From Hymenobacter ginkgonis (GTDB lineage Bacteria; Bacteroidota; Bacteroidia; Cytophagales; Hymenobacteraceae): 64,000 bases of DNA. The stretch covers positions 124,001 through 188,000 of the forward strand of contig NZ_WQKZ01000006.1 of the NCBI RefSeq assembly GCF_009755225.1. Reading direction: 5' to 3'. The position numbers and the translations under genes are program-made. The notes under the pieces were generated by a model, which made no database searches, had not been told where the DNA came from, and saw only the letters and a program-made list of their open reading frames with translations. Positions 3,501 through 31,990 of this stretch are shown piece after piece (the first letter of the stretch is position 1; every line of letters starts with the position of its first letter).

Positions 3501-3969
3501 TCTGTTCGTGTCGCAGTGGGATAACTACCCGCGCCAAGCCACGGTGCCCCTGCGCGGGCAGGCCGCCCGCGCCGTGCTGCTGCTGGCCGGCAGCACCAGC
3601 GCCATGCAAAGCCAGTTTGCCAACGGCGAAGTGACCGTGGCCTACACCGATGGCAGCACCGCCACCCTACCCCTGCGCAACCCCGACAACTGGTGGCCCA
3701 TCGAGCAAGACTACCAGGACGATGGCTTTGCCTTCCGCACCAACGCCCCCAAGCCCTACCGGGTGCACCTCAAAACGGGCCTCATCACCCGCGATTTTGC
3801 TAAGTATACCAGCCTCAAGGGCTACAGCACCCGCGCCATCGACGGTGGCGCGGCCACCGTGCTGGAACTACCCCTCGACCCGAAAAAGAAGCTCAAAAGC
3901 CTCACTATGCACGCGTTGGCTAATGATGTAGTAATCGGCCTAATGAGCGTGACGCTGGGCCGCCAGTAG
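535..3969 (+). CDS. DUF4450-type secreted (alpha/alpha)6 glycosidase-like protein
   Basis: Large secreted protein of about 1,144 residues. The ATG at 535 overlaps the upstream stop by one base and opens a signal peptide (TLKSTLLLLLWGLLRG ending near AQA). The N-terminal region (FVITNGERRFNRALYGTNTAFRVEAGDLPEF) has the look of DUF4450. The middle (~residues 310-730) resembles a six-hairpin glycosidase barrel, with segments such as WRIRLNGWRGPYAADPLGWHDR, HYDMNLVYVDALLRHLRWTGD and FDPDGDGLYDAYAAIWASD. The C-terminal ~350 residues look like beta-sandwich domains. Proteins of this kind occur in Bacteroidota pectin loci, but I do not know a defined activity. Given the RG lyase-like, GH2 and CE8 neighbours, a role in trimming rhamnogalacturonan or arabinogalactan oligosaccharides is inferred. 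Confidence 0.7.
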   Translation: MTLKSTLLLLLWGLLRGVGQAQVAPTPPLWHNQPRTLRYHPEGQDFVITNGERRFNRALYGTNTAFRVEAGDLPEFALYLPGMGGNLKFGLLAGGQSKWLLKAEHITARYRPGAMLYDITDPLLGAGRLHLEVLALADAEGVLVRAQFDNVPAKKVQLLWVFGGATGKKFSRDGDIGADPESSFYLKPEYCQGNAFVLKDNTFQLTYGVGEPAKAPTPPPAPKVLVGVGPPAAKLRLADAAQQASPEELLASQGSATPVLAGVMSVRAGEALYFQVQKPGDAKQLTYKELPAAFAQAEAARTALASRVQVSTPDAYINTLGGALAVAADAIWEAPSYLHGAVAWRIRLNGWRGPYAADPLGWHDRASQHFRAYAKSQLLSPASGPVVPDTALHEARQLEKLGTAIFSSGYISRNPGGDFRPHHYDMNLVYVDALLRHLRWTGDLAEARELWPTLQRHLAWEKRNFDPDGDGLYDAYAAIWASDALQYSGGAVTHTSAYNYFANQLAAELAALLHEDAAPYRQEAARIHEAINKRLWLPGQGWYAEYQDALGLKQLHPAAGLWTIYHALDSEVPDALQAYQALRYIDAELPHIPVRAAGLPDAGYYLLSTTNWQPYDWSLNNVVMAENLHATLAYWQAGRREAAFLLWKSALLESMYLGASPGNFQQISFYDANRGELYRDFADPIGVAARSLVEGLFGIQPDALHDTLRVRPGLPAAWDSARLKVPDVSFQFRRQGQREVYTIVPSFAKALALKLQVPALADHIQSVTVNGQPVAWHNLAGAVGQPTIEVTSAPAARYVVAIQWQGPAISPARPAPTVAPGGRFAAQFAPARVGPVRDPQQALRQVQTPATGTELTAQVAGQPGSRTAFVQLQQGDFQWWEPLPLTVQSPLAAAPIATPAKSAKWETVDLAPYYNDQVTRIFQNRYLSPRATTATLELPTQGIGNWCYPLTQANIDDSGLRRLAGTKNEIQLPTGMPFRTPSAAGSRNILFVSQWDNYPRQATVPLRGQAARAVLLLAGSTSAMQSQFANGEVTVAYTDGSTATLPLRNPDNWWPIEQDYQDDGFAFRTNAPKPYRVHLKTGLITRDFAKYTSLKGYSTRAIDGGAATVLELPLDPKKKLKSLTMHALANDVVIGLMSVTLGRQ

Positions 3970-3994
3970 CGGCCGCGCTACAGCGCCGCTGTGG

Positions 3995-5752
3995 CTAGTA
4001 GTGCGTGTGGTTTACCACGGTGCGTTGCAGATACTCCGGGTTTTTCTTCAGGTCTACCCCCCTCGATTGGGCTTGGCGGCTGCCGTACACGCGCAGCCAG
4101 CCGGGGCTAAGGGTGATGACCTGCTCGGCCCCGGTACCTTCAAAATCAAATAGGTGAAACACCGGATCGGGGAAGTACAGCTCGCCGGTACCGGCATCGT
4201 TGAGCCGAAACTTGTACCAGAACAAGTCGGTAGTGCGGCCGTCGCCGCGCCAGTTGCCGCGCACAAAATCGGGGTTGCCGTTGAGCGGGGTGCCGGGCCA
4301 TTTCTTCACGCGGCGGCCTTGGCTGTCAAACCAATAGAGCTGGCTCGAAAGGTAGGGCTCGCCGGCTTCGCGGTTGCCGTAGGTGCGGCCGCCCACCACT
4401 ACTTGCGGCCCCGGCACGGCACGCAAAAAGTCGCCCACCTGAATTTGCTGGCTGTGCTCGGCGGTGACCTGCCAAATGGTTTTGCCCGTGAACGCCTGGC
4501 GCACGAAGACGCCGGTTTCGCTGTTGGCCGTCACGATGTCGAGGTGCCCGTCGTGGTTCACATCCGCAAATTTGTAGCTGTCGGCGTGGTCGTGGTTGTC
4601 GGGCAGCAGGTCGAAGCGGTTCCAGATTTCCTTCCCCTTGGCGTCGAGCAGCAGCGAGCCCACCAGCACCTCATCCACACCATCTTGGTCGAGGTCAACG
4701 GGGTAGACGTAGTGGCCGAGGCTGTCCTTTTTGCGCGGTTCGGTGTGCGTCCAGAGCGGTTTTAGCTGGGCATCGTAGGCTGAAACCGAAATGGTGCCGC
4801 CCATATCGGTGAGCACCACCAGGTCGTTGGGGGCGCCGCCGGGGTGCAGCCGGCCCACCGCCAGCCGGAAGTTGTTGTAGTCGTGGGGTAGTGGGCGGGT
4901 AGGCCAGGGCACCTCGCGGCGGATGCGGCCCGTGCGGCCGTCGGCCAGCACCAGCCACTCGCGGCCGTCGTGGAAGCGCCAGTGCGCCAGCTCGGCCCGG
5001 CGGTCGTGGTCAAAATCCCACACCACGCCGGGCGCCTCAAATTCGGAGCGCTCTTTTACGTACTCACTAGGAGCCTGGTACTGCCACAGCGCACGGCCGC
5101 TGTTGTCGAATACGTGCACCGAAAAATCGGGGCTTAGCACGGCAAAATCAGTCTTGCCGTCGCCGGTCACATCGCCAAACTTCACGGCGTTGGAAGCCGG
5201 AATAGGGTACTCGTGCAGCAGCTGCACATCGGCGGCTAGCTGCTGGGGCCGCACGTCGGCTTCCGCCAGCTGCGGGTTTTGGCTGAGCACCAGCACGTCA
5301 AACGCCCCGCCCAGCTCGACGCGGGTAATCTTGATATCGGCCGGGCCGGCGGGCAGCGCGAAGGTGCCGCCCGGCTGCCAGCTCAGCGGCCCCTGGCCAA
5401 AAGCGGTAGCCGTTAGCTGGTCGTTCACGGCCACCCGAAACGACGTTTTGGGGCCGCCCTGGCTGCGCACGTAGAGGTAGTAGGTGCCCGCGGCCGGCAC
5501 CTGCACCTGGGTGAGCAAGTTGGTTTTCGACTTGAGCACCAGCGCCGTATTGTTGAACAGCCACGGCGCCTTCAGCTCGCCGGCAGTGGCGATAATGTCG
5601 CCCTTCGGCAGCTCCTCCAAAAAATCCGAAGCCGGCACGATGACGGTGTTAGGCAGGGGGGTAGGGCCACTCGCCTGGGCGTGGGCCAAGCTGCCTAAGC
5701 CTGCGCTAAGTAGCAGCAGTGTTGCGCCAATGCTGCGCAAAAAGTAGCTCAT
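3995..5752 (-). CDS. Secreted beta-propeller protein, PL11-like rhamnogalacturonan lyase candidate
   Basis: A 585-residue protein with a clear signal peptide (SYFLRSIGATLLLLSAGLGSLAHAQA). Residues ~40-160 form a beta-sandwich module. From ~180 onward there are FG-GAP/VCBS-type blades with calcium-loop motifs: DVTGDGKTDF, DFDHDRRAEL, DLDQDGVDEVLVG and DVNHDGHLDIV. The order of an NHDHADSYKF segment, an SETGVF segment, TGKTIWQ, then H-x-QQIQVGDF and a C-terminal GTGAEQVITLSPGWLRVYG blade recalls PL11 rhamnogalacturonan lyases (YesW/YesX). Those enzymes cut the RG-I backbone by calcium-dependent beta-elimination. Assignment to PL11 is by pattern and could be wrong; a non-catalytic FG-GAP protein is the alternative. 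It converges with the DUF4450 gene across only 25 bp. Confidence 0.6.
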   Translation of the reverse strand: MSYFLRSIGATLLLLSAGLGSLAHAQASGPTPLPNTVIVPASDFLEELPKGDIIATAGELKAPWLFNNTALVLKSKTNLLTQVQVPAAGTYYLYVRSQGGPKTSFRVAVNDQLTATAFGQGPLSWQPGGTFALPAGPADIKITRVELGGAFDVLVLSQNPQLAEADVRPQQLAADVQLLHEYPIPASNAVKFGDVTGDGKTDFAVLSPDFSVHVFDNSGRALWQYQAPSEYVKERSEFEAPGVVWDFDHDRRAELAHWRFHDGREWLVLADGRTGRIRREVPWPTRPLPHDYNNFRLAVGRLHPGGAPNDLVVLTDMGGTISVSAYDAQLKPLWTHTEPRKKDSLGHYVYPVDLDQDGVDEVLVGSLLLDAKGKEIWNRFDLLPDNHDHADSYKFADVNHDGHLDIVTANSETGVFVRQAFTGKTIWQVTAEHSQQIQVGDFLRAVPGPQVVVGGRTYGNREAGEPYLSSQLYWFDSQGRRVKKWPGTPLNGNPDFVRGNWRGDGRTTDLFWYKFRLNDAGTGELYFPDPVFHLFDFEGTGAEQVITLSPGWLRVYGSRQAQSRGVDLKKNPEYLQRTVVNHTHY

Positions 5753-11361: not shown

Positions 11362-13785
11362 ATGCGTATTTCGCTACTGGCTGCCGGGCTGGGGCTACTG
11401 CTGGCCCCCGCCATTGGCCGGGCTCAGACGACCAACTCCGGGACTGATAAATTTGCGCAGCTCGAAACGCTGCTCCCTACCCCCAATTCGTACCGCACCG
11501 CCAGCGGCGCGCCCGGCCCGCAGTACTGGCAGCAGCGCGCCGACTACAACATCAAGGTGAGCCTCGACGACCAGAAGCAGGCCATCACCGGCTCGGAGAC
11601 CATCACTTATACCAACCTCTCGCCCGATGTGCTGACCTACCTGTGGGTGCAGCTCGACCAGAATATTCTGGCCAAAAACTCCATCACGGCGGCTACCAAT
11701 GTGGGCCAGGTAGCGGGGGGTAGGCTCTCGTTTCAGGAGCTCGACAACCAGCTGGCGGTGGCCGAGTTTGATGGCGGCTACAAAATCGCGGCCGTGACCG
11801 ACGCGGGTGGTAAGGCGCTGAAGTACACCATCAACCACACGATGATGCGCATCGACCTGCCTACCCCCCTGCGGCCCAAACAGGCCATTTCGTTTGGGGT
11901 AAAGTGGAGCTACAACATCAGCGACCAGCTCAAAATAAACGAGCGCAGCGGCTACGAGTACTTCCCGGCCGACAAGAACTACCTCTACGAAATGGCACAG
12001 TTTTACCCCCGCATGGCCGTCTATTCCGACGCTACGGGCTGGCAGAACAAGCAGTTTTTGGGTAATGGCGAGTTTACGCTGCCCTTCGGCAACTACCGCG
12101 TGAGCATCACGGCGCCCGCCGACCACATTGTGGGCGCCACCGGTACGCTGCAAAATGCGTCGCAGGTGCTCACGGCCACCCAAATCAAGCGCTTGGCGCA
12201 AGCCAAAAACGCCAAGAAGCCGGTGCTCATCGTGAGCCAGGACGAGGCCACGCGCAACGAAACCAGCCGCGCCACCGGCACCAAAACCTGGACCTTTGCC
12301 GCCACCAACGTGCGCGATTTTGCCTGGGCTAGCTCGCGCAAATTCATCTGGGATGCCATGCAAATTACGCAGAGCGGCAAGCCCGTGCTCTGCATGAGTT
12401 ACTACCCCAAGGAAGGTAACCCGCTGTGGGGCAAGTACTCTACTGAGGTGGTGGCCCACACCATCAAGACGTATTCGAAGTTCACCATTCCCTACGCTTA
12501 CCCCGTGGCCATCTCGGTGCACGGCCCGGTGGGCGGCATGGAATACCCGATGATTTGCTTCAACGGCGGCCGGCCCGAGAAGGACGGCACCTACTCGGCC
12601 GACCGGAAATACGGGATGATTTCGGTGATTATCCACGAAGTGGGCCACAACTTCTTCCCGATGATTGTGAACTCCGACGAGCGCCAGTGGACCTGGATGG
12701 ACGAGGGCCTCAACACCTTCTGCCAGTACCTAACCGAGCAGGAGTGGGAGCGCGACTACCCCAGCCGCCGCGGCGAGCCCAAGAACATCGTGGACTACAT
12801 GCGCACCGATAAGAGCCTGCAAACCCCGATTATGACCAACTCGGAGTCGGTATTGCAGTTCGGCAACAACGCTTACGGCAAGCCCGCCACTGCCCTCAAT
12901 ATCCTGCGCGAGACAGTGATGGGCCGCGAATTATTCGACTACGCCTTCAAAACCTACGCCCAGCGCTGGGCCTACAAGCACCCGCAGCCGGCCGACTTCT
13001 TCCGTACCATGGAAGACGCCTCGGCTGTGGACCTCGACTGGTTCTGGCGCGGCTGGTTCTACACTACCGAGCGCTGCGATATTTCGCTCGATGGCGTGAA
13101 ATATTACCGCCCCAACACCAAGAACCCCGGCGTCGAAAACGCCCGCTTGCAGAACGAGCGCCAGGCCCAGCTGCCCAGCATCTCGGCTCAGCGCAATGCT
13201 ACCGACCTCAAAACCACCGCCGTGGATGAGAAGCCCGACCTCAAGGATTTCTACAACGGCTACGACCCGCTGGCCGTGAGCGAGGCCGACAAGCAGCGCT
13301 ACTTCCAGTACCTGAGCACGCTCAACCCGCAGCAGCAAGGCCGCCTCAACAGCAACCTCAACCTTTATGAGCTGAACCTGCACAACGTGGGTGGCCTCGT
13401 GATGCCCGTCATCATTCAGATGACCTACGACGATGGCAGCTCGGATATCGTGAACATTCCGGCCGAAATCTGGCGCAAAAACAACGAGCAGGTGACCAAG
13501 ATTATCGTGTCGCCCAAAAATGTGGTGTCGTTTGTGCTCGACCCCTACCAGCAAACTGCCGATACCGACCTGAGCAACAACGCCTACCCCCGCCAGCCCA
13601 CGCCTTCGCGCTTCGACTTGTTCCAGCAAGGCCAGGCCGGCAACAATGCCCAGCAGCCCCTCAACCCCATGCAGCAAGCCACCACGGCTGCGCCAGCGCC
13701 CGCTACCCCCGGCACCACCGGCCAGCCCGCGCCTGCCATGCCCTTGCAGCAGCGCGAGAAAAAGCCGAACCCCAGCGGCCGCTAG
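11362..13785 (+). CDS. M1 family zinc aminopeptidase, secreted
   Basis: An 807-residue gluzincin metallopeptidase. The ATG at 11362 is chosen because it starts a signal peptide (RISLLAAGLGLLLAPAIGRAQ); the longer reading frame has 31 extra residues without signal character. After an N-terminal beta domain with the LSPDVLTYLWVQLDQN motif, the exopeptidase motif appears as GGMEYP and the zinc site as HEVGH (H425, E426, H429) with the third ligand E448 eighteen residues later (WMDEGLN). A Pro/Ala/Gln-rich tail of ~60 residues ends the protein. Members of this branch (ERAP-like, secreted in Bacteroidota) cleave N-terminal residues from peptides, probably in the periplasm. Confidence 0.93.
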   Translation: MRISLLAAGLGLLLAPAIGRAQTTNSGTDKFAQLETLLPTPNSYRTASGAPGPQYWQQRADYNIKVSLDDQKQAITGSETITYTNLSPDVLTYLWVQLDQNILAKNSITAATNVGQVAGGRLSFQELDNQLAVAEFDGGYKIAAVTDAGGKALKYTINHTMMRIDLPTPLRPKQAISFGVKWSYNISDQLKINERSGYEYFPADKNYLYEMAQFYPRMAVYSDATGWQNKQFLGNGEFTLPFGNYRVSITAPADHIVGATGTLQNASQVLTATQIKRLAQAKNAKKPVLIVSQDEATRNETSRATGTKTWTFAATNVRDFAWASSRKFIWDAMQITQSGKPVLCMSYYPKEGNPLWGKYSTEVVAHTIKTYSKFTIPYAYPVAISVHGPVGGMEYPMICFNGGRPEKDGTYSADRKYGMISVIIHEVGHNFFPMIVNSDERQWTWMDEGLNTFCQYLTEQEWERDYPSRRGEPKNIVDYMRTDKSLQTPIMTNSESVLQFGNNAYGKPATALNILRETVMGRELFDYAFKTYAQRWAYKHPQPADFFRTMEDASAVDLDWFWRGWFYTTERCDISLDGVKYYRPNTKNPGVENARLQNERQAQLPSISAQRNATDLKTTAVDEKPDLKDFYNGYDPLAVSEADKQRYFQYLSTLNPQQQGRLNSNLNLYELNLHNVGGLVMPVIIQMTYDDGSSDIVNIPAEIWRKNNEQVTKIIVSPKNVVSFVLDPYQQTADTDLSNNAYPRQPTPSRFDLFQQGQAGNNAQQPLNPMQQATTAAPAPATPGTTGQPAPAMPLQQREKKPNPSGR

Positions 13786-26205: not shown

Positions 26206-27066
26206 ATGAAATTATTTCGTTTCGGCCCAGTGGGCCAAGAAAAACCGGGTGTTTTGACCGCCGCCGGCCAACACCTGGACGTGTCGGCATTTGGGGAAGA
26301 TTACCACGAAGCTTTTTTTGCCACTGATGGCCTGACGCGCTTAGCCGCCTGGCTGCCCGGCCACGTCGCCGAATGCCCACCCCTGCCGGCCGGCGTGCGG
26401 CTGGGGCCGTGCGTGGCTCGGTCGTCCAAGCTCATCGGCATTGGGCTCAACTACCGGCAGCACGGCGCCGAAACCGGCCTGGGCACGCCCCTAGAGCCGG
26501 TATTTTTTCTGAAAGCCCCCTCGGCCATCAGCGGGCCCCACGACGACGTGGTGCTTCCGCGCGATGCCACCAAGCTCGACTACGAAGCGGAACTGGCGTT
26601 CGTCATTGGGCGGCGGGCCAGCTACGTGCCGGAGGCCGAGGCGCTCAGCTACGTAGCCGGCTACACCATCCTCAACGATTACAGCGAGCGGGCCTTCCAG
26701 CTAGAGCGCGGCGGGCAGTGGACCAAGGGAAAAAGCGCCGACACCTTCGCACCCTTGGGGCCGTATCTCACGCCCGCCACCGCAGTGCCCGACCCGCAAA
26801 ACCTGCCCATTTGGCTGGCCGTCAACGGCGAAACCCGCCAGGATGCCAGCACCCGCGACATGCTTTTTACCCTGCCTAAGCTCATCAGCTACGTGAGCGA
26901 GTTTATGACGCTGCTGCCCGGCGACATCCTTACCACCGGTAGTCCGGCGGGGGTAGGGATGGGCTTAAACCCGCCCCACTACCTGCAAGCCGGCGACAAG
27001 GTGGAGCTGCGCATCGGCGAGCTGGGCACGCAGCGCCAGCGCATCGTGCCGTTTCGCCGCACCTAG
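26206..27066 (+). CDS. Fumarylacetoacetate hydrolase (FAH) family protein
   Basis: A 286-residue FAH-fold enzyme. Start ATG at 26206 gives KLFRFGPVGQEKPGV. Catalytic and metal residues of the family are seen in IGIGLNYRQHGAETG (His), LDYEAELAFVIGR (two Glu), YTILNDYSERAFQ (Asp) and the C-terminal GDILTTGSPAGVGMG. Members hydrolyse or decarboxylate 2,4-diketo acids, for example ureidoglycolate lyase-like, acylpyruvase or 2-keto-3-deoxy sugar acid enzymes. In several sugar pathways FAH proteins act on 2,4-diketo-3-deoxy acids of fucose or rhamnose, but no pathway partner is adjacent, so the substrate is left open. Confidence 0.88.
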   Translation: MKLFRFGPVGQEKPGVLTAAGQHLDVSAFGEDYHEAFFATDGLTRLAAWLPGHVAECPPLPAGVRLGPCVARSSKLIGIGLNYRQHGAETGLGTPLEPVFFLKAPSAISGPHDDVVLPRDATKLDYEAELAFVIGRRASYVPEAEALSYVAGYTILNDYSERAFQLERGGQWTKGKSADTFAPLGPYLTPATAVPDPQNLPIWLAVNGETRQDASTRDMLFTLPKLISYVSEFMTLLPGDILTTGSPAGVGMGLNPPHYLQAGDKVELRIGELGTQRQRIVPFRRT

Positions 27067-27125
27067 CGTGGTCTAATTAACCCAAGTTGTGGACTATAGG
27101 GTGTTGTTAAACAATAAGGGGGAAA

Positions 27126-27216
27126 CCGCCGACTTAGCCCTGCTCGGGTTTAGTCGGCGGCTACCAGGCGGCAATTAACGCCTTATCAAGAGAGGCCTTA
27201 GCCAGCTGGGGCTAAG
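27126..27216. other. Hairpin-bearing intergenic stretch at the left edge of the SDR island
   Basis: Two clean hairpins lie here: CCGCCGACT/AGTCGGCGG (27126-27134 with 27152-27160) and CTTAGCC/GGCTAAG (27197-27203 with 27210-27216). There is no T-run. Base composition changes just to the right. This may be the end of a vanished mobile element; no open frame of recognisable identity is present. Confidence 0.35.
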
Positions 27217-27273
27217 CGGAAAAGTCGTATTTGCCAGGCAGGTTCGCGTGGCGGTCAGGAGGAACCCCAAAAG

Positions 27274-27627
27274 TTATTTCGCGAATATTTTATCGTGATG
27301 CGCCAGTCCCCACTCCGTTAGGTTGTCGATGATGGATTTGAGCGTTTTGCCGTGCTCCGTCAGCTCATATTGCACCGTTATGGGCTGGGTATTTAGCACG
27401 GTACGCTTGACCAGCTGATTGATTTCCAACTCTTTCAATTCCTTGCTCAGCATCTTATTGGAGACGCCGACGACGTCGTTCAGCATATCCGAAAACCGCC
27501 GCTTTTGGTAACAGCAAATGGAGGATATGATGGCGATTTTCCATTTGCCATTCAGCACGTCCATGGAATCCTGGACGGCCCGCATGGCCCGTTTATTTTC
27601 GGCGTCCTGCTGGATGATGCACTTCAT
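27274..27627 (-). CDS. HxlR-family transcriptional regulator
   Basis: A 117-residue winged-helix regulator. VQDSMDVLNGKWKIAIISSI is the HxlR signature, CYQKRRFSDMLNDVVGVSNKMLSKELKELEINQLVKRTV the recognition helix and wing region, and YELTEHGKTLKSIIDNLTEWGLAHHDK the family C-terminus. The N-terminal Cys (KCIIQQ) is placed like sensor cysteines in YodB/HypR-type members, which respond to quinones or aldehydes. It is divergent from an SDR gene, with a palindromic operator in between, so autoregulation and control of the SDR is likely. Confidence 0.92.
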   Translation of the reverse strand: MKCIIQQDAENKRAMRAVQDSMDVLNGKWKIAIISSICCYQKRRFSDMLNDVVGVSNKMLSKELKELEINQLVKRTVLNTQPITVQYELTEHGKTLKSIIDNLTEWGLAHHDKIFAK

Positions 27628-27654
27628 AGGTTACTTGGTTAACGCGTGGTTACT

Positions 27655-27687
27655 GTTACTTTTCGACACAAAGTTACCAAAAGCAAC
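27655..27687. promoter_or_regulatory. Candidate HxlR operator, copy 1
   Basis: GTTACTTTT at 27655-27663 and AAAAGCAAC at 27679-27687 form an inverted repeat with a 15-nt spacer and one mismatch. It lies between the hxlR start and the SDR start. An almost identical, perfect version is found at 29056-29088 before the second SDR gene. Confidence 0.65.
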
Positions 27688-27733
27688 CGTATAATCCGAC
27701 CTTTGCAGCTCACAATTTCACTGAAATACGCAG

Positions 27734-28486
27734 ATGAGCAAGTTAGCGAACAAGGTTGCCGTGATTACTGGCGGTAATAGTGGTATCGGGCTTGGTATTG
27801 CCCAAGAATTCAAAAATGAAGGTGCTAAAGGCGTTATTGTCGGCCGAAATCAGGAAACGTTAGCTGGTGCGGTGGCGCAGCTTGGCGACAGTTTTATCGC
27901 CATTAATGCCGATGTAACCAACCCTGCCGACCTAGAAAGGGTGTTTAAAGAAACCGCTGAAAAATTTGGTAAAATCGACGTGGTGGTAGCCAATGCGGGT
28001 GGGGGAACTGTCGGAACGGTGGAAAGTCTAGGCGAAGCCGACTTTGACAAGACCATTGATTTAAACCTGAAAAGCGTCTACTTCACTGTTCATAAAGCAC
28101 TGCCCCATATGAATGATGGGGGCTCTATTATTCTTATCGGGTCCAATGCCGCGCACCGGGCCTATCCAAATTTCACGCTTTATGGTGCTGCCAAAGCGGC
28201 CGTCATCTATTTTGCAAAAGGCTTTTCAAGCGACCTTTTAGGTAGAAAGATTAGAGCAAATGTCATAACACCAGGTACCACGGATACTCCGGCATTTGAC
28301 AAGTTTGTTCCCGCCGAACAAATTGACGCGTTAAAAAAACACTTTGCGGGTGAAATGCCGATAGGCAGAATCGGGCAACCGTCTGACATTGGTAAAACAG
28401 CGGTTTTCTTGGCTTCTGATGATTCTTCGTTTATGCTTGGGGCTGAACTCATCGTGGACGGTGGTATGACCTATTTGTCTAAGTAA
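27734..28486 (+). CDS. SDR-family oxidoreductase, AT-rich, HxlR-linked
   Basis: A 250-residue classical short-chain dehydrogenase/reductase. Cofactor motif is VITGGNSGIGLGIAQEF, followed by NADVTNPADLERVF, VVANAGGG, catalytic Ser in ILIGSNAA and YGAAKAA (Tyr-x3-Lys). The C-terminus ends LGAELIVDGGMTYLSK. It would reduce or oxidise a small carbonyl or alcohol with NAD(P)H; substrate unknown. Sample lines give ~37-47% G+C by eye, against about 60% or more in neighbours, indicating recent acquisition. It is divergent from hxlR with the candidate operator in between. Confidence 0.9.
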   Translation: MSKLANKVAVITGGNSGIGLGIAQEFKNEGAKGVIVGRNQETLAGAVAQLGDSFIAINADVTNPADLERVFKETAEKFGKIDVVVANAGGGTVGTVESLGEADFDKTIDLNLKSVYFTVHKALPHMNDGGSIILIGSNAAHRAYPNFTLYGAAKAAVIYFAKGFSSDLLGRKIRANVITPGTTDTPAFDKFVPAEQIDALKKHFAGEMPIGRIGQPSDIGKTAVFLASDDSSFMLGAELIVDGGMTYLSK

Positions 28487-28507
28487 GGGGCCCCACGCTG
28501 GGGCGAG

Positions 28508-28643
28508 TTTAGGAAGTAGGCAAGTCAATTTGAACGTCATGCTGAGCTTGTCGAAGCATCTTTACCGCTTCGTATGAGCTAGTGCAACGAAGCGGTAGCG
28601 ATGCTTCGACAAGCTCAGCATGACGACCTGGCGACTTCCTAAA
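28508..28643. repeat. Composite palindrome, CGTCATGCTGAGCTTG family
   Basis: The inner palindrome 28532-28560 / 28600-28625 starts GAACGTCATGCTGAGCTTGT and has nearly perfect arms of 26 nt or more. It is flanked by an outer pair TTTAGGAAGT (28508-28517) and ACTTCCTAAA (28634-28643), so the whole unit looks like a miniature element with terminal inverted repeats. It lies downstream of the AT-rich SDR gene. Confidence 0.75.
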
Positions 28644-28690
28644 TAGCTTCTATATTTCGTGCCAGTGAACAAGTCGAAACTGTACAAGAG

Positions 28691-28728
28691 AAGCCCCGGA
28701 AGCTATTGCCTCCGGGGCTTTTCTTTTT
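28691..28728 (+). terminator. Rho-independent terminator downstream of the first SDR locus
   Basis: AAGCCCCGGA pairs with TCCGGGGCTT around a 10-nt loop and is followed by TTCTTTTT. It lies ~205 bp after the SDR stop, behind the composite palindrome, which may have inserted between gene and terminator. Confidence 0.8.
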
Positions 28729-28816
28729 CGGTGATTTCTACACGTTAATTGCCATAAGTCCTTCGCTAGGTAGCAGTTGCTTTAAGCCAGTAACACGAGC
28801 ACCTGCTGGCTTCTTA

Positions 28817-29028
28817 TTACAACGGAGCGAAAAATTTCGGCAGGCGTTTGACTAGCTCGCTATTCTTTTCTGAGCTAGCGCATTGATTGGTGAGATGCCA
28901 ATAAAAGGCACTTAGCCGAGGACGTGCGGAACGGCACTCTTCCTTTTGCCATTTAGCACATCCATGGCATCCTGGACGGTCCCTATTGCCCTTCTGAAAT
29001 CTTCGCTCAGGCAGGATTTGCACGGCAT
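28817..29028 (-). pseudogene. Decayed HxlR regulator gene
   Basis: From an ATG at 29028 the minus strand reads MPCKSCLSEDFRRAIGTVQD and continues AMDVLNGK before losing similarity and stopping at 28912. This matches the N-terminus of the hxlR gene at 27.3 kb (RAMRAVQDSMDVLNGK) including its position relative to the operator. Further on, a fragment EKNSELVKRLPKFF may derive from the INQLVKRTV region in another frame. The recognition helix is missing, so the gene is dead. The operator and SDR promoter beside it are preserved. Confidence 0.7.
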
Positions 29029-29055
29029 AGGTTACTGTGTTACCCCGGGGTTACT

Positions 29056-29088
29056 GTTACTTTTTGATACATAGTTGCTAAAAGTAAC
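29056..29088. promoter_or_regulatory. Candidate HxlR operator, copy 2 (perfect)
   Basis: GTTACTTTT (29056-29064) and AAAAGTAAC (29080-29088) are exact inverted repeats with a 15-nt spacer. The surrounding ~80 bp, from GGTTACTG to CTTTGCAGCTCA, closely parallels the sequence before the first SDR gene. The right half-site overlaps the spacer of the candidate promoter. Confidence 0.65.
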
Positions 29089-29106
29089 ATTGTGATTCTA
29101 GCTTTG
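29075..29106 (+). promoter_or_regulatory. Promoter of the second SDR gene
   Basis: TTG at 29075-29077, then 21 bp, then TAGCTTTG at 29099-29106, agreeing with the Bacteroidota consensus TTTG-N19-22-TAnnTTTG. The candidate operator overlaps it, which suggests repression by HxlR. The transcript leader would be ~22 nt. Confidence 0.6.
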
Positions 29107-29134
29107 CAGCTCAATTTTTCAACTGAACTAGAAG

Positions 29135-29893
29135 ATGAGCAAGCTCAAAAACAAAGTAGCCATCGTGACTGGGGCCTCGAAAGGAATCGGCGCGGCTATC
29201 GCGACCTATTTTGCCGCCGAAGGGGCCAACGTGGTGGTAAATTATGCCTCCAGTAGAGAAGGAGCGGCCCGGGTGGTGAAAGCCATTACTGAGGCCGGCG
29301 GCACGGCTATTTCGGTGCAGGCCGATGTATCGAACGAAGCCGATGTTAGCCGGCTGTTTGCCGAAACCAAGGCGGCGTTCGGCACTCTCGATATTCTGGT
29401 TAACAACGCGGTCTTTCAAGGATACACCCCAATTGAACAGGTATCGGTCGAAGCTTTTCATCAACATTTCAACGTCAATGTGTTGGGGCCTATCCTGACT
29501 ATCCAGGCCGCGTTGAAACTGTTTGGCGAGAAGGGCGGCAATATCATCAATATCAGTTCGGGGGCCAGCAAATACCCGCTTCCAGCCGCCTCGTTGTACT
29601 CGGCCACGAAAGCGGCCTTGGATGCCATCACCATTTCGTTGTCGAAAGAACTGGGGGCCAAAAATATCCGGGTCAATTCTATTTTGCCGGGCGCGACGGC
29701 AACCGAAGGGGCCGCTAGTGCGGGCGTCACGGCGGGCAGTGAGTACGAAAAAATGTTTATTGCCAACACCCCGCTTGGGCGCCGAGGCCAGCCCGCAGAT
29801 ATTGCCAAAGCGGTCGTCTTTCTGGCTTCCGATGAGGCCGCCTGGATTACGGGCGAGCAACTTTCCGTTTCGGGTGGAATGTATGGGTTTTAA
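29135..29893 (+). CDS. SDR-family oxidoreductase, second HxlR-type locus
   Basis: A 252-residue classical SDR. Motifs are VTGASKGIGAAIATYF, a VVNYASSREGA stretch typical of NADP-dependent members, QADVSNEADVSRLF, LVNNAVFQGY, catalytic Ser in NISSGAS and LYSATKAAL (Tyr-x3-Lys), ending ITGEQLSVSGGMYGF. It resembles glucose-1-dehydrogenase or FabG-like enzymes. It is only distantly related to the SDR at 27.7 kb and has native-like GC (~60% in a sampled line), although both share the same upstream regulatory region. Its own divergent regulator is a pseudogene, so it may be controlled by the intact HxlR 1.5 kb away. Confidence 0.9.
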   Translation: MSKLKNKVAIVTGASKGIGAAIATYFAAEGANVVVNYASSREGAARVVKAITEAGGTAISVQADVSNEADVSRLFAETKAAFGTLDILVNNAVFQGYTPIEQVSVEAFHQHFNVNVLGPILTIQAALKLFGEKGGNIINISSGASKYPLPAASLYSATKAALDAITISLSKELGAKNIRVNSILPGATATEGAASAGVTAGSEYEKMFIANTPLGRRGQPADIAKAVVFLASDEAAWITGEQLSVSGGMYGF

Positions 29894-29963
29894 CGGGTAG
29901 TAGTACTACGCACCTTCATACTGATGTCACGTCCGGCTAGGTGTTGACTAGAATAAGGCAAGG

Positions 29964-29994
29964 GCCCCGCTCGGATTTTCCGGCGGGGCTTTTT
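29964..29994 (+). terminator. Terminator after the second SDR gene
   Basis: GCCCCGC pairs with GCGGGGC followed by TTTTT, 70 bp after the stop. Confidence 0.78.
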
Positions 29995-30057
29995 GTGGGC
30001 TAATGGACGTAGCTAGAGGTTACCAGTAGTCTCAATGCCTTTGCGAAAGTGTTAAAG

Positions 30058-30373
30058 CAACTAAGCCTGCACCGGGTGGTAGGGACGCTTACTGTGCTTG
30101 CGACGCGCCGTCTGCTGCGGGCTACCTATGGCCTGGGCAAACACGTCTTCCAGCGCATAGTCGTGTAGGCGGCATCGAGGCAGTACGTGCTACCTATCAG
30201 TAAATTCACGGCCATGGCCCGCAGGCCGGTGATGTTGGCCTAGCTTCCAGCGTAGAGGTAAAACTCGACAGGCACACCAGCGCCGTCGTCAGTACCTGCG
30301 CGTCTGTCAGCCGGCGGGGCGGGGGTAGTAAATCGTCTGGGAGGCAATGCAGTGCAACGGTCTGTTTGCGCAT
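30058..30373 (-). pseudogene. Transposase remnant
   Basis: From an ATG at 30373 the minus strand reads MRKQTVALHCLPDDLLPPPR and then RLTDAQVLTTALVCL, which resembles the N-terminus of IS982/IS4-like transposases of Bacteroidota (the LTDAQVLTTALV segment). A frameshift follows; another frame continues as ANITGLRAMAVNLLIG, and the last piece reads ARRKHSKRPYHPVQA before a stop. In-frame stops and frameshifts mean it is inactive. Family assignment is uncertain. It fills most of the 690-bp gene-free stretch after the second SDR gene. Confidence 0.5.
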
Positions 30374-30457
30374 AGTAGGTTGGGAGGTCAGAAATCCAAA
30401 CCTGGCCTGTTTACGCCGAACAAACTTTTTTTAGGAGCCGCCTACTCCGCAACTTGA

Positions 30458-30566
30458 GTTAATAAAAAACAGCCCGTCCTGCTGACGACAGGAAGCAGCT
30501 CCGCCACGCCGTTCAGCGAAGCGGTAGAGTTGCTTCCTATCGCCAGTGGGACGGGCTGTTAATTAA
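30458..30566. repeat. Intergenic palindrome, GTCCTGCTGA variant
   Basis: AACAGCCCGTCCTGCTGACG... is answered by ...GGGACGGGCTGTT, with an inner GGAAGCA/TGCTTCC pairing. It lies just downstream of the quinone-reductase-like gene (minus strand) and could be its terminator. Confidence 0.7.
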
Positions 30567-30582
30567 CCAGTTGGCCTACGCT

Positions 30583-31455
30583 TTACAACTGGTAGGCCGC
30601 CTTCAAAAAATCGGCCGCTGACTCGGGCTTGTGGCCCAGTAGCTTTTCTAGGGTAGAGCTGGGGAGGTCAAATTCGCCCTGCGCAATGGCCACGCTAAAA
30701 CCCGCGGCCATCTGAATGCCTTCGGCCGGCACGCCGGCTTGCGCCAGCTGCGTACCAAACTCCTCAGCGGTGGGTGACACGTAGTGCACCTCTTTGCCCG
30801 ATAAGTCGCTTAAAATCTTGGCGATATCAGCGAAAGACAACGACTCATTACTGGCTATCTCATAGGACTGGTTTTCGTGGCCGGTGCCCGTGAGCACGGC
30901 AGCACACGCGGCGCCCATGTCGGCGCGGCTCGCAAACGAACCGCGCCCTTCGCCGGCCGGCAAGTAGATAGTGCCGATTTCGAGTGCCGGCCCCATAAAC
31001 TGGGGTAGCACGTCGAGGTACAGCGCGTTTTTAAGAATGGTGTAGGTGAGGCCCGATGCTTTCAGCAGCTTTTCGGTAGCCAAGTGGGCTTCCGTCACGA
31101 AGGCAACTGCCGAAGAGCCATCTTCCGTTTTGCGCTGCGCGCTGGTATAAACGAGGTGCTGCACGCCGGCGGCCGCAGCAGCTTTTAGCACGTTGGTGTG
31201 CTGCGGCACGCGCTGCGTGATGTCGTTGCCCGATACAAGCAGCAGCTTGTCGATGCCTGCAAAAGCTGCCGTGAGAGAATCGTAATCAGCATAGTCGCCC
31301 TTGCGGACGGTTACGCCCCGGGCTTGTAGGTCGGCAGCTTTGGCGGGGTCGCGCACTAAAACGGAAATCTGGTCGGCACCGACGGTTTTCAGCAGGTTCT
31401 CAACTACTGCTTTGCCCAGGCCGCCCGTGGCGCCGGTTACGAGTATTTTGCTCAT
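30583..31455 (-). CDS. NAD(P)H:quinone oxidoreductase-like atypical SDR (QorB/YtfG type)
   Basis: A 290-residue NmrA-like atypical SDR. ATG at 31455 chosen because it precedes SKILVTGATGGLGKAVVENLL, the Rossmann start; the longer frame adds unrelated residues. Other family pieces are LVRDPAKAADLQARGVTVRKGDYADYDSL, AFAGIDKLLLVSG and VQHLVYTSA. YtfG (QorB) reduces quinones with NADPH. It is divergent from an HxlR gene, the same arrangement as E. coli qorB with its HxlR-type regulator QorR/YtfH, which supports the call and suggests quinone or electrophile induction. Confidence 0.87.
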   Translation of the reverse strand: MSKILVTGATGGLGKAVVENLLKTVGADQISVLVRDPAKAADLQARGVTVRKGDYADYDSLTAAFAGIDKLLLVSGNDITQRVPQHTNVLKAAAAAGVQHLVYTSAQRKTEDGSSAVAFVTEAHLATEKLLKASGLTYTILKNALYLDVLPQFMGPALEIGTIYLPAGEGRGSFASRADMGAACAAVLTGTGHENQSYEIASNESLSFADIAKILSDLSGKEVHYVSPTAEEFGTQLAQAGVPAEGIQMAAGFSVAIAQGEFDLPSSTLEKLLGHKPESAADFLKAAYQL

Positions 31456-31543
31456 ATAACTAAAGGGGGGTAGGGCTGGTAGCCCCGGTTGTGGTGAAAA
31501 ACCCTCCCAGCCTAGTAGCGCAAATCGCGGCTGGAGGAGGCGA

Positions 31544-31561
31544 CAAAGGTCGCTACCTTTG
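31544..31561. promoter_or_regulatory. Palindromic promoter-operator between qorB-like and hxlR genes
   Basis: CAAAGGT-CGCT-ACCTTTG is a perfect 7+7 palindrome. Its right half completes TACCTTTG, an exact TAnnTTTG box for the hxlR gene; the left half read on the minus strand gives a near-match for the divergent gene. A single regulator dimer could cover both -7 elements. Confidence 0.55.
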
Positions 31562-31624
31562 CTTACCAAAAGTCAGCAGCTACCTCTAGGTAAGCGCTTA
31601 CCCCGACGTAACCACTCGCTTCGC

Positions 31625-31990
31625 ATGGAATTCCTCACCCCCGGCCACTGCATCTCGTCTATTCGCCCCTTGCGCGATGCGCTCGACGTTATCAACGGCA
31701 AGTGGAAACTGCAAATTTTGGTGGTTATTACCACTGGACACCAGCGCTTTCGCGAAATAGAGCGCAGCATTCCCAGTATTTCTTCCAAAGTACTCGCCAA
31801 GGAGCTGAAGGACCTCGAAGCCCACAAGCTCATCAAACGTACCGTGCAGGAGGGCCCGCCCGTGCTCGTGACCTACGAGGTGCTCCCCTACGCCGATAGC
31901 CTTGACCCTGTCATTTTTGCCCTGCGCGACTGGGGCCTGAAGCACCGGGCAATGATTATGGGCCCGGACGCTGGCGCTAGCCCCGCCTAA
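31625..31990 (+). CDS. HxlR-family regulator, QorR/YtfH-like
   Basis: A 121-residue winged-helix protein. ATG at 31625 precedes EFLTPGHCISSIRPLRDALDVINGKWKLQIL, the HxlR N-terminus with a conserved cysteine (GHC) that senses redox state or electrophiles in several members. The recognition region is GHQRFREIERSIPSISSKVLAKELKDLEAHKLIKRTV. It is divergent from the qorB-like gene and probably its repressor. Confidence 0.9.
   Translation: MEFLTPGHCISSIRPLRDALDVINGKWKLQILVVITTGHQRFREIERSIPSISSKVLAKELKDLEAHKLIKRTVQEGPPVLVTYEVLPYADSLDPVIFALRDWGLKHRAMIMGPDAGASPA

What the first reader, a model, noticed from the sequence alone, without database searches (positions are those of the whole stretch)
27274..29893. 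Two SDR loci share one HxlR operator-promoter cassette; one regulator has decayed
The ~110 bp between hxlR and SDR at 27.63-27.73 kb and the region at 29.03-29.13 kb are closely similar, including GTTACTTTT-N15-AAAAGYAAC and the CTTTGCAGCTCA segment. The SDR genes themselves are only distantly related and differ in GC. On the far side of the second copy lies an hxlR pseudogene starting at 29028. So a regulatory head was duplicated or swapped onto a different enzyme, and the surviving HxlR may now control both loci. This is a small natural case of regulon building by cassette duplication.
Basis: seen in the sequence. Interest (0 to 1): 0.6.

Follow-up and report, generated by a model that had tools for sequence, protein, structure and literature searches.

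The report
One regulator, two duplicated gene switches
In a Hymenobacter-type bacterium, two related oxidoreductase genes that many relatives keep under one shared switch each carry their own copy of that switch, beside one intact regulator gene and the stump of a second; it is a tidy but modest example of how shared gene control can survive rearrangement.

Summary
In detail: 27532-27771 and 28933-29172 are colinear, 75% over 237 bp, E 5e-38. They cover the hxlR 5' third, a ~107-bp promoter/operator 'head' and the first SDR codons. A 38-codon hxlR stump starts at 29028. At the thresholds used the genome holds only these two heads and one HxlR of this group.

No new enzyme was recruited: the same HxlR, head and both SDR types already lie together in 35 of 74 non-Hymenobacter loci examined, and head 2 is closer to heads of other species than to head 1. 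Exchange is suggested but not proven: the surviving hxlR groups with regulators of hxlR|SDR2 loci (96/91; AU test against the alternative p 0.06), while the head cannot tell the two types apart.

The unit fills a site empty in three relatives. Three other Hymenobacter have one hxlR and two heads; Puia/Mucilaginibacter loci carry an hxlR stump. Most likely two related units merged, one regulator died, and the survivor serves both heads; control in trans is inferred. A new variant of a known kind.

The parts
27274..27627 (-). hxlR-A, intact HxlR/DUF24 regulator, 117 aa
   Evidence: Pfam HxlR 83.1 bits, cut-off 20.8; only match of its group in the genome at E<=1e-38
27628..27733 (.). head 1: promoter/operator region between hxlR and SDR1
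   Evidence: head HMM 76.1 bits (the window heads were in the training set)
27655..27687 (.). inverted repeat in head 1 (1 mismatch)
27698..27705 (+). predicted -7 element of SDR1, GACCTTTG; its first base departs from TAnnTTTG
   Evidence: 78 of 83 scorable heads have T here, 5 have G; consensus from PMC6847099 passages
27734..28486 (+). SDR1 (type 1a), short-chain dehydrogenase/reductase, 250 aa
   Evidence: Pfam adh_short_C2 211 bits, cut-off 27; 87% to G310, 83% to G147
28912..29028 (-). psi-hxlR: 38-codon stump of a second hxlR; similarity to hxlR ends near 28933
29029..29134 (.). head 2: second copy of the promoter/operator region
   Evidence: head HMM 83.9 bits (in the training set)
29056..29088 (.). 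inverted repeat in head 2 (0 mismatches)
29099..29106 (+). predicted -7 element of SDR2, TAGCTTTG
   Evidence: sequence; consensus from PMC6847099 passages
29135..29893 (+). SDR2 (type 2a), short-chain dehydrogenase/reductase, 252 aa
   Evidence: Pfam adh_short_C2 215 bits, cut-off 27; 89% to G083, 88% to G104
27058..30579 (.). segment absent from G070, G086 and G108, where the FAH hydrolase gene is followed closely by the NmrA-like gene

Best explanation
A 3.5-kb segment, probably acquired, carries an old HxlR-regulated pair of SDR enzymes. Two related hxlR-head-SDR units came together and recombined somewhere between the hxlR body and SDR codon 9. One hxlR-head now stands before SDR1; SDR2 keeps its own head but only the 5' third of its hxlR. 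The surviving HxlR most likely binds both heads in trans, answering an electrophile or redox signal, so that two transcripts stay under one control. Shown: anatomy, empty site, uniqueness of heads and regulator at the thresholds used, recurrence in relatives. Supported but not proven: the exchange. Inferred: binding, signal, sign of control (derepression slightly favoured), co-regulation.
For: HxlR groups with G083/G104/G103, whose partner is SDR2a: 96/91 on DNA, 92/89 and 95/89 on protein. hxlR identity: G104 301/354, G083 298, G103 286; SDR1a-linked G108 276, G080 271. At hxlR sites where the two types differ the window matches G083 or G104 over G108 or G080 by 46:24 to 54:24 (p 0.012 to 0.0009); states shared only with the SDR2a-linked trio 11, only with the SDR1a-linked pair 2; the SDR body goes the other way, 9:100 to 12:104. 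G108:C202: head 92-97% like G108:C1/G080, leader (81%) and codons 1-8 (88-96%) like three of four SDR2a heads (leader 65% to the fourth, G083), body SDR1a. G103: SDR2a groups with G108/G080 (100/99), HxlR with G083/G104 (94/89). Head 2 is kept while the stump decays: vs G104 95/107 and 68/95, p 0.002; vs G083 90/107 and 66/95, p 0.018. One hxlR with two heads in G019, G116, G118; an hxlR stump before a full head in L134, L136, L138. Empty site in G070, G086, G108. Cys3 and Cys38 invariant in 14 of 14 aligned HxlR-A; a conserved N-terminal Cys senses electrophiles or oxidants in this family (PMC7835342, passages; I did not align Cys3 with it).
Against: The AU tests do not reject a grouping with the SDR1a-linked regulators (p 0.060 DNA, 0.092 protein). 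The head itself does not discriminate: 83/106 to G083, 80/104 to G108, so the junction is not located, and against G103 the hxlR site counts are not significant (p 0.31, 0.11). The Fisher contrast is not significant for G103, G019 and G118 (p 0.10, 0.07, 0.20), and the comparisons are not independent or corrected. The stump's best match is the window's own hxlR (72/95; next G370 70/95), which leans slightly to an in-genome copy. The direction is open: G083-type loci could instead arise by loss of SDR1 between two heads. The leader and codon segments total 50 nt. No binding or expression data.
Confidence: 0.45

Rival explanations
1. One reading: hxlR and head were copied within this lineage onto a different enzyme, recruiting it to the regulon.
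For: Two heads 1401 bp apart; the stump's best match is the window's own hxlR, 72/95; the regulator beside SDR1 groups with SDR2a-linked ones.
Against: Head 2 is nearer to G104 (95/107) and G083 (90/107) than to head 1 (83/107); head 1 is nearer to G083 (90/106) than to head 2 (82/106), though in a global alignment head 1 has only a small margin (75% against 73%). SDR1a already stands beside this HxlR in Mucilaginibacter, Puia, Flavobacterium and Chryseobacterium loci and in G108 and G080, so no new enzyme joined.
Confidence: 0.13
2. Two complete hxlR-head-SDR units simply lie in tandem; one hxlR decayed and nothing was exchanged.
For: Intact hxlR|SDR2a (G083, G104, G103) and hxlR|SDR1a (G108:C1, G080) units exist; the head does not discriminate; AU p 0.060 and 0.092.
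Against: hxlR site counts 46:24 to 54:24 for G083/G104 over the SDR1a-linked type, and 11 to 2 shared states.
Confidence: 0.27
3. Head 2 is only a leftover promoter; SDR2 no longer answers to HxlR (compatible with any of the origins above).
For: No binding data; selection on the promoter alone could keep the -7 element and leader.
Against: The side of head 2 next to the dead hxlR is still 52/60 like G104, 49/60 like G083 and 46/60 like G103, against 69/96, 67/96 and 67/96 for the stump; its inverted repeat has no mismatch.
Confidence: 0.2
4. The 38-codon stump is a functional small protein, for example a dominant-negative HxlR fragment.
For: Open frame with start, Cys3 and stop; a stump of the same 5' region recurs in L134, L136, L138.
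Against: 48% identical to HxlR residues 1-33; the three other stumps are split between frames.
Confidence: 0.03

Closest known systems
hxlR|SDR2-SDR1 and hxlR|SDR1-SDR2 loci of Bacteroidota (Dyadobacter, Flavobacterium, Chryseobacterium, Chitinophaga, Mucilaginibacter)
   Same: Same HxlR group, same kind of head, same two SDR types
   Different: In 35 non-Hymenobacter two-SDR loci no head was found before the second SDR
Hymenobacter crusticola-type loci (G019 = L132; also G116, G118)
   Same: One intact hxlR, two heads, two SDRs
   Different: SDR2b first, SDR1b second; no convincing hxlR stump before the second head (best blastn E 0.008 over 17 bp in G019)
HxlR/DUF24 regulators: HxlR of Bacillus subtilis (PMC7835342, passages); YodB, HypR, QorR (recalled, listing)
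   Same: Pfam HxlR domain, N-terminal Cys
   Different: No Lys two residues after Cys3, unlike the Cys11-Lys13 pair; signal and sign of control unknown
Horizontal regulatory transfer by recombination of intergenic regions (recalled; papers holding the term seen only as listings)
   Same: A promoter region changes its gene by recombination
   Different: Here a regulator gene would move with it, and the exchange is not proven

Membership tests
HxlR/DUF24 regulators (PF01638) | HxlR domain over the curated cut-off | tested here: met
   83.1 bits, cut-off 20.8
HxlR/DUF24 regulators (PF01638) | conserved N-terminal cysteine | tested here: met
   Cys3 in 14 of 14 aligned rows; the four HxlR partners of the third SDR type, not in that alignment, lack it (sequences)
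HxlR/DUF24 regulators (PF01638) | binds the divergent promoter and answers an electrophile or oxidant | not testable with these tools
   needs gel shift and expression
classical SDR enzymes (PF00106/PF13561) | domain score over cut-off; TGxxxGxG and YxxxK (motifs recalled) | tested here: met
   adh_short_C2 211 and 215 bits, cut-off 27; TGGNSGIG/YGAAK in SDR1, TGASKGIG/YSATK in SDR2 (translations)
Recent in-genome duplication | the two copies are each other's closest relatives | tested here: not met
   Head 2: G104 95/107, head 1 83/107. Against this, the stump alone is best matched by the window's hxlR, 72/95, by a small margin
Regulon expansion to a new enzyme | the enzyme is outside the regulon in relatives | tested here: not met
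   SDR1a and SDR2a lie in HxlR-A loci elsewhere; but in G310, G147, G401 and G142 the same SDR types lie beside a different HxlR, 29-33% identical

The most novel reading that the evidence does not exclude
The hxlR-head, perhaps with the first few SDR codons, works as an exchangeable regulatory adaptor: homologous recombination anchored in the conserved 5' end of SDR genes moves it between SDR subfamilies, so that one HxlR keeps or regains control of scattered SDR genes. Possible traces: the window's hxlR/SDR1 mismatch, the G108:C202 mosaic, G103, second heads in G019/G116/G118, and stumps in Puia/Mucilaginibacter.
Probability: 0.25. Interest if true: 0.5.

Novelty: new variant of a known kind. 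Interest (0 to 1): 0.35.

Why it matters
It gives a small natural series: one switch before two genes, two switches with the stump of a second regulator, and two switches with one regulator. With it one could test by simple gel shifts whether a duplicated operator is kept for shared control after its own regulator is lost. No known function is overturned.

Tried and rejected
Chance similarity of the heads: rejected. The idea that a different regulator (HxlR-C) was the ancestral partner of SDR1a/SDR2a came from G310, G147, G401 and G142; dropped as a general rule when the named set showed HxlR-A with SDR1a in several genera. The idea that the head carries the first codons because headless SDR1b begin MKLQGK or MKLKNK and head-bearing ones MSKLxNK was weakened: operon copies without their own head begin MSKL, MEKL or MKRL. 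Sigma-70-type promoter scan: 1 found, 3.1 expected; terminator-like sites 6 found, 4.6 expected; not used. Literature, listings only: searches (15 of 26 rows; 15 of 44; 2 of 2) showed no paper on this module by title and abstract; others (15 of 19; 1 of 1; 8 of 58; 8 of 27) gave background. Passages only were read of PMC7835342 and PMC6847099.

redid it: the hxlR signal stays, the head signal goes. Three rows (G118_2b, G100_1b, G407_2b) also had a wrong start; they were re-anchored and their values are not used.
Full report
Observation. Window 27532-27771 and 28933-29172 are direct repeats at constant spacing, 177/237 identities, E 5e-38. They contain the 5' third of hxlR (minus strand), a ~107-bp head and the first ~12 codons of SDR1 and SDR2. 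The second hxlR is a 38-codon open stump, 28912-29028, 48% identical to HxlR 1-33; no convincing match to the rest was found. SDR1 and SDR2 are 39% identical. In the 5.67-Mb genome only these two heads were found (DNA query at E<=0.001; patterns with up to 3 mismatches) and one HxlR of this group at E<=1e-38.

Anatomy of the head. Over 86 heads the consensus is GTTACtt.GTTAC.tc.atGTTACtGTTAcTTTT.g.tACAAAGTTaCtAA, then TA.cTTTG. The last element fits the Bacteroidota -7 box TANNTTTG (PMC6847099, passages). With a transcription start 4-5 nt after it, the inverted repeat spans about -55 to -23 in both heads (my calculation). That suits blocking of the -33 region but is also centred where an activator could sit, and formaldehyde increases transcription by B. 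subtilis HxlR (PMC7835342, passages), so the sign of control is open. Head 1 has G instead of T at the first base of the -7 box; 78 of 83 scorable heads have T and 5 have G.

Relatives in the genus. 13 of 120 genomes, own included, hold this HxlR at E<=1e-38, so it is patchy. G083, G104 and G103 have hxlR|SDR2a; G108:C1 and G080 hxlR|SDR1a-SDR2a; G108:C202 an interrupted hxlR (run of N) before SDR1a; G100 hxlR|SDR1b; G019, G116 and G118 hxlR|SDR2b, then a second head and SDR1b; G014, G015, G024 and a second G100 locus a third SDR type. Names by equal contig length: G080 Hymenobacter sp. UV11, G019 H. crusticola, G103 sp. CA1UV-4, G100 sp. YC55; so the window's genus is taken to be Hymenobacter.

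Wider set. The head model was built from the upstream regions of these 80 loci plus the window's two heads, so its finding a head in 80 of 80 is by construction; of the 29 other fetched regions it finds one in 20 (101 of 110 sources in all), and the nine without are, by count, the regions in which one search showed no HxlR-A. Of 74 non-Hymenobacter loci, 35 hold an SDR1-type and an SDR2-type gene on one strand at my cut-off: SDR2b-SDR1b 20, SDR1a-SDR2a 13, SDR1b-SDR2a 2. None of the 35 has a head before the second SDR; three (L134, L136, L138) have two heads, both between hxlR and SDR1a. DNA ended at 4-kb flanks or contig ends, so 35 is a lower bound. Genes between SDR1a and SDR2a include F420-oxidoreductase-like, cNMP-binding and SnoaL-like proteins. 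Nine of the 80 loci had no recognised SDR directly beside hxlR by my cut-offs; two of them, L134 and L136, do have SDR1a after an extra head. In four genomes of the order (G310, G147, G401, G142) SDR1a or SDR2a lies near a different HxlR, 29-33% identical, with a different upstream region.

Was anything exchanged? The surviving hxlR is nearer to SDR2a-linked regulators (G104 301/354, G083 298, G103 286) than to SDR1a-linked ones (G108 276, G080 271), with G019 at 281. Trees agree (96/91 DNA; 92/89 and 95/89 protein), but AU tests do not reject the alternative (p 0.060, 0.092). At sites where the types differ the window sides with G083 or G104 by 46:24 to 54:24 (p 0.012 to 0.0009) and with G103 by 45:35 and 46:31 (p 0.31, 0.11). 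The head is silent: 83/106 to G083, 80/104 to G108; the tree of hxlR 5' end plus head is weak and does not pair head 1 with head 2. The SDR body is SDR1a: codons 9-100 222/276 to G108 and 124/264 to G083. So an exchange between hxlR and SDR1 is likely, but its junction is not located. Two other discordances point the same way: G108:C202 (head like G108:C1/G080; leader and codons 1-8, 50 nt, mostly SDR2a-like) and G103 (SDR2a with G108/G080, HxlR with G083/G104).

Decay and selection. Relative to G104 head 2 keeps 95/107 and the stump 68/95 (p 0.002); G083 p 0.018; G103, G019 and G118 0.10, 0.07 and 0.20; at locus 1 the same contrast gives p 0.15 to 1. The hxlR side of head 2, no longer needed for its own dead hxlR, is 52/60, 49/60 and 46/60 like G104, G083 and G103, the stump 69/96, 67/96 and 67/96. 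The switch seems to be kept while its neighbour rots, on modest statistics.

Site. In G070 and G086 the FAH hydrolase gene is followed after 86-89 bp by similarity to the NmrA side; in G108 after ~123 bp (its FAH gene is split over two contigs). The window has 27058-30579 in between. In G077, G047 and G011 FAH and alanine dehydrogenase are also near each other, but without hits to NmrA, HxlR or the SDRs. Insertion in the window's lineage is the simplest reading; loss in several genomes is possible.

Verdict. Two related hxlR-head-SDR units most likely merged, one regulator died, and one HxlR probably serves two heads. The two enzyme types were an old pair, so this is shared control kept by duplicated switches, not recruitment. 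Ordinary in kind, with a useful natural series; interest 0.35.

Noticed in passing
28529-28721: 39-bp palindrome repeat after SDR1; Rfam AaHKsRNA41 reaches 97.1 bits (cut-off 97). With up to 2 mismatches its 25-mer matches 5 times in the window, so it looks like a dispersed repeat rather than an sRNA gene.
   Followed up: partly
30583-31990: A second, different HxlR (31622-31990, about 37% identical) faces an NmrA-like oxidoreductase next door; this pair is also in G070, G086 and G108.
   Followed up: partly
27698 (head 1); also L134, L136, L138, L184: G at the first base of the -7 box. Four of the five such heads lie in loci with two heads; three of these are alike, so perhaps two events.
   Followed up: no
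L134, L136, L138, about 3640-4002: Puia/Mucilaginibacter: intact hxlR with a partial head, then an hxlR stump split between frames, a full head and SDR1a.
   Followed up: partly
L066 about 11860-12215: Interrupted hxlR with a run of N before SDR1a in G108:C202; the N run may be an assembly gap, so that it is broken is uncertain.
   Followed up: no
30206-30373: 55-codon minus-strand ORF downstream of SDR2 that reads like a transposase piece by eye; no Pfam match at E<=0.001.
   Followed up: no
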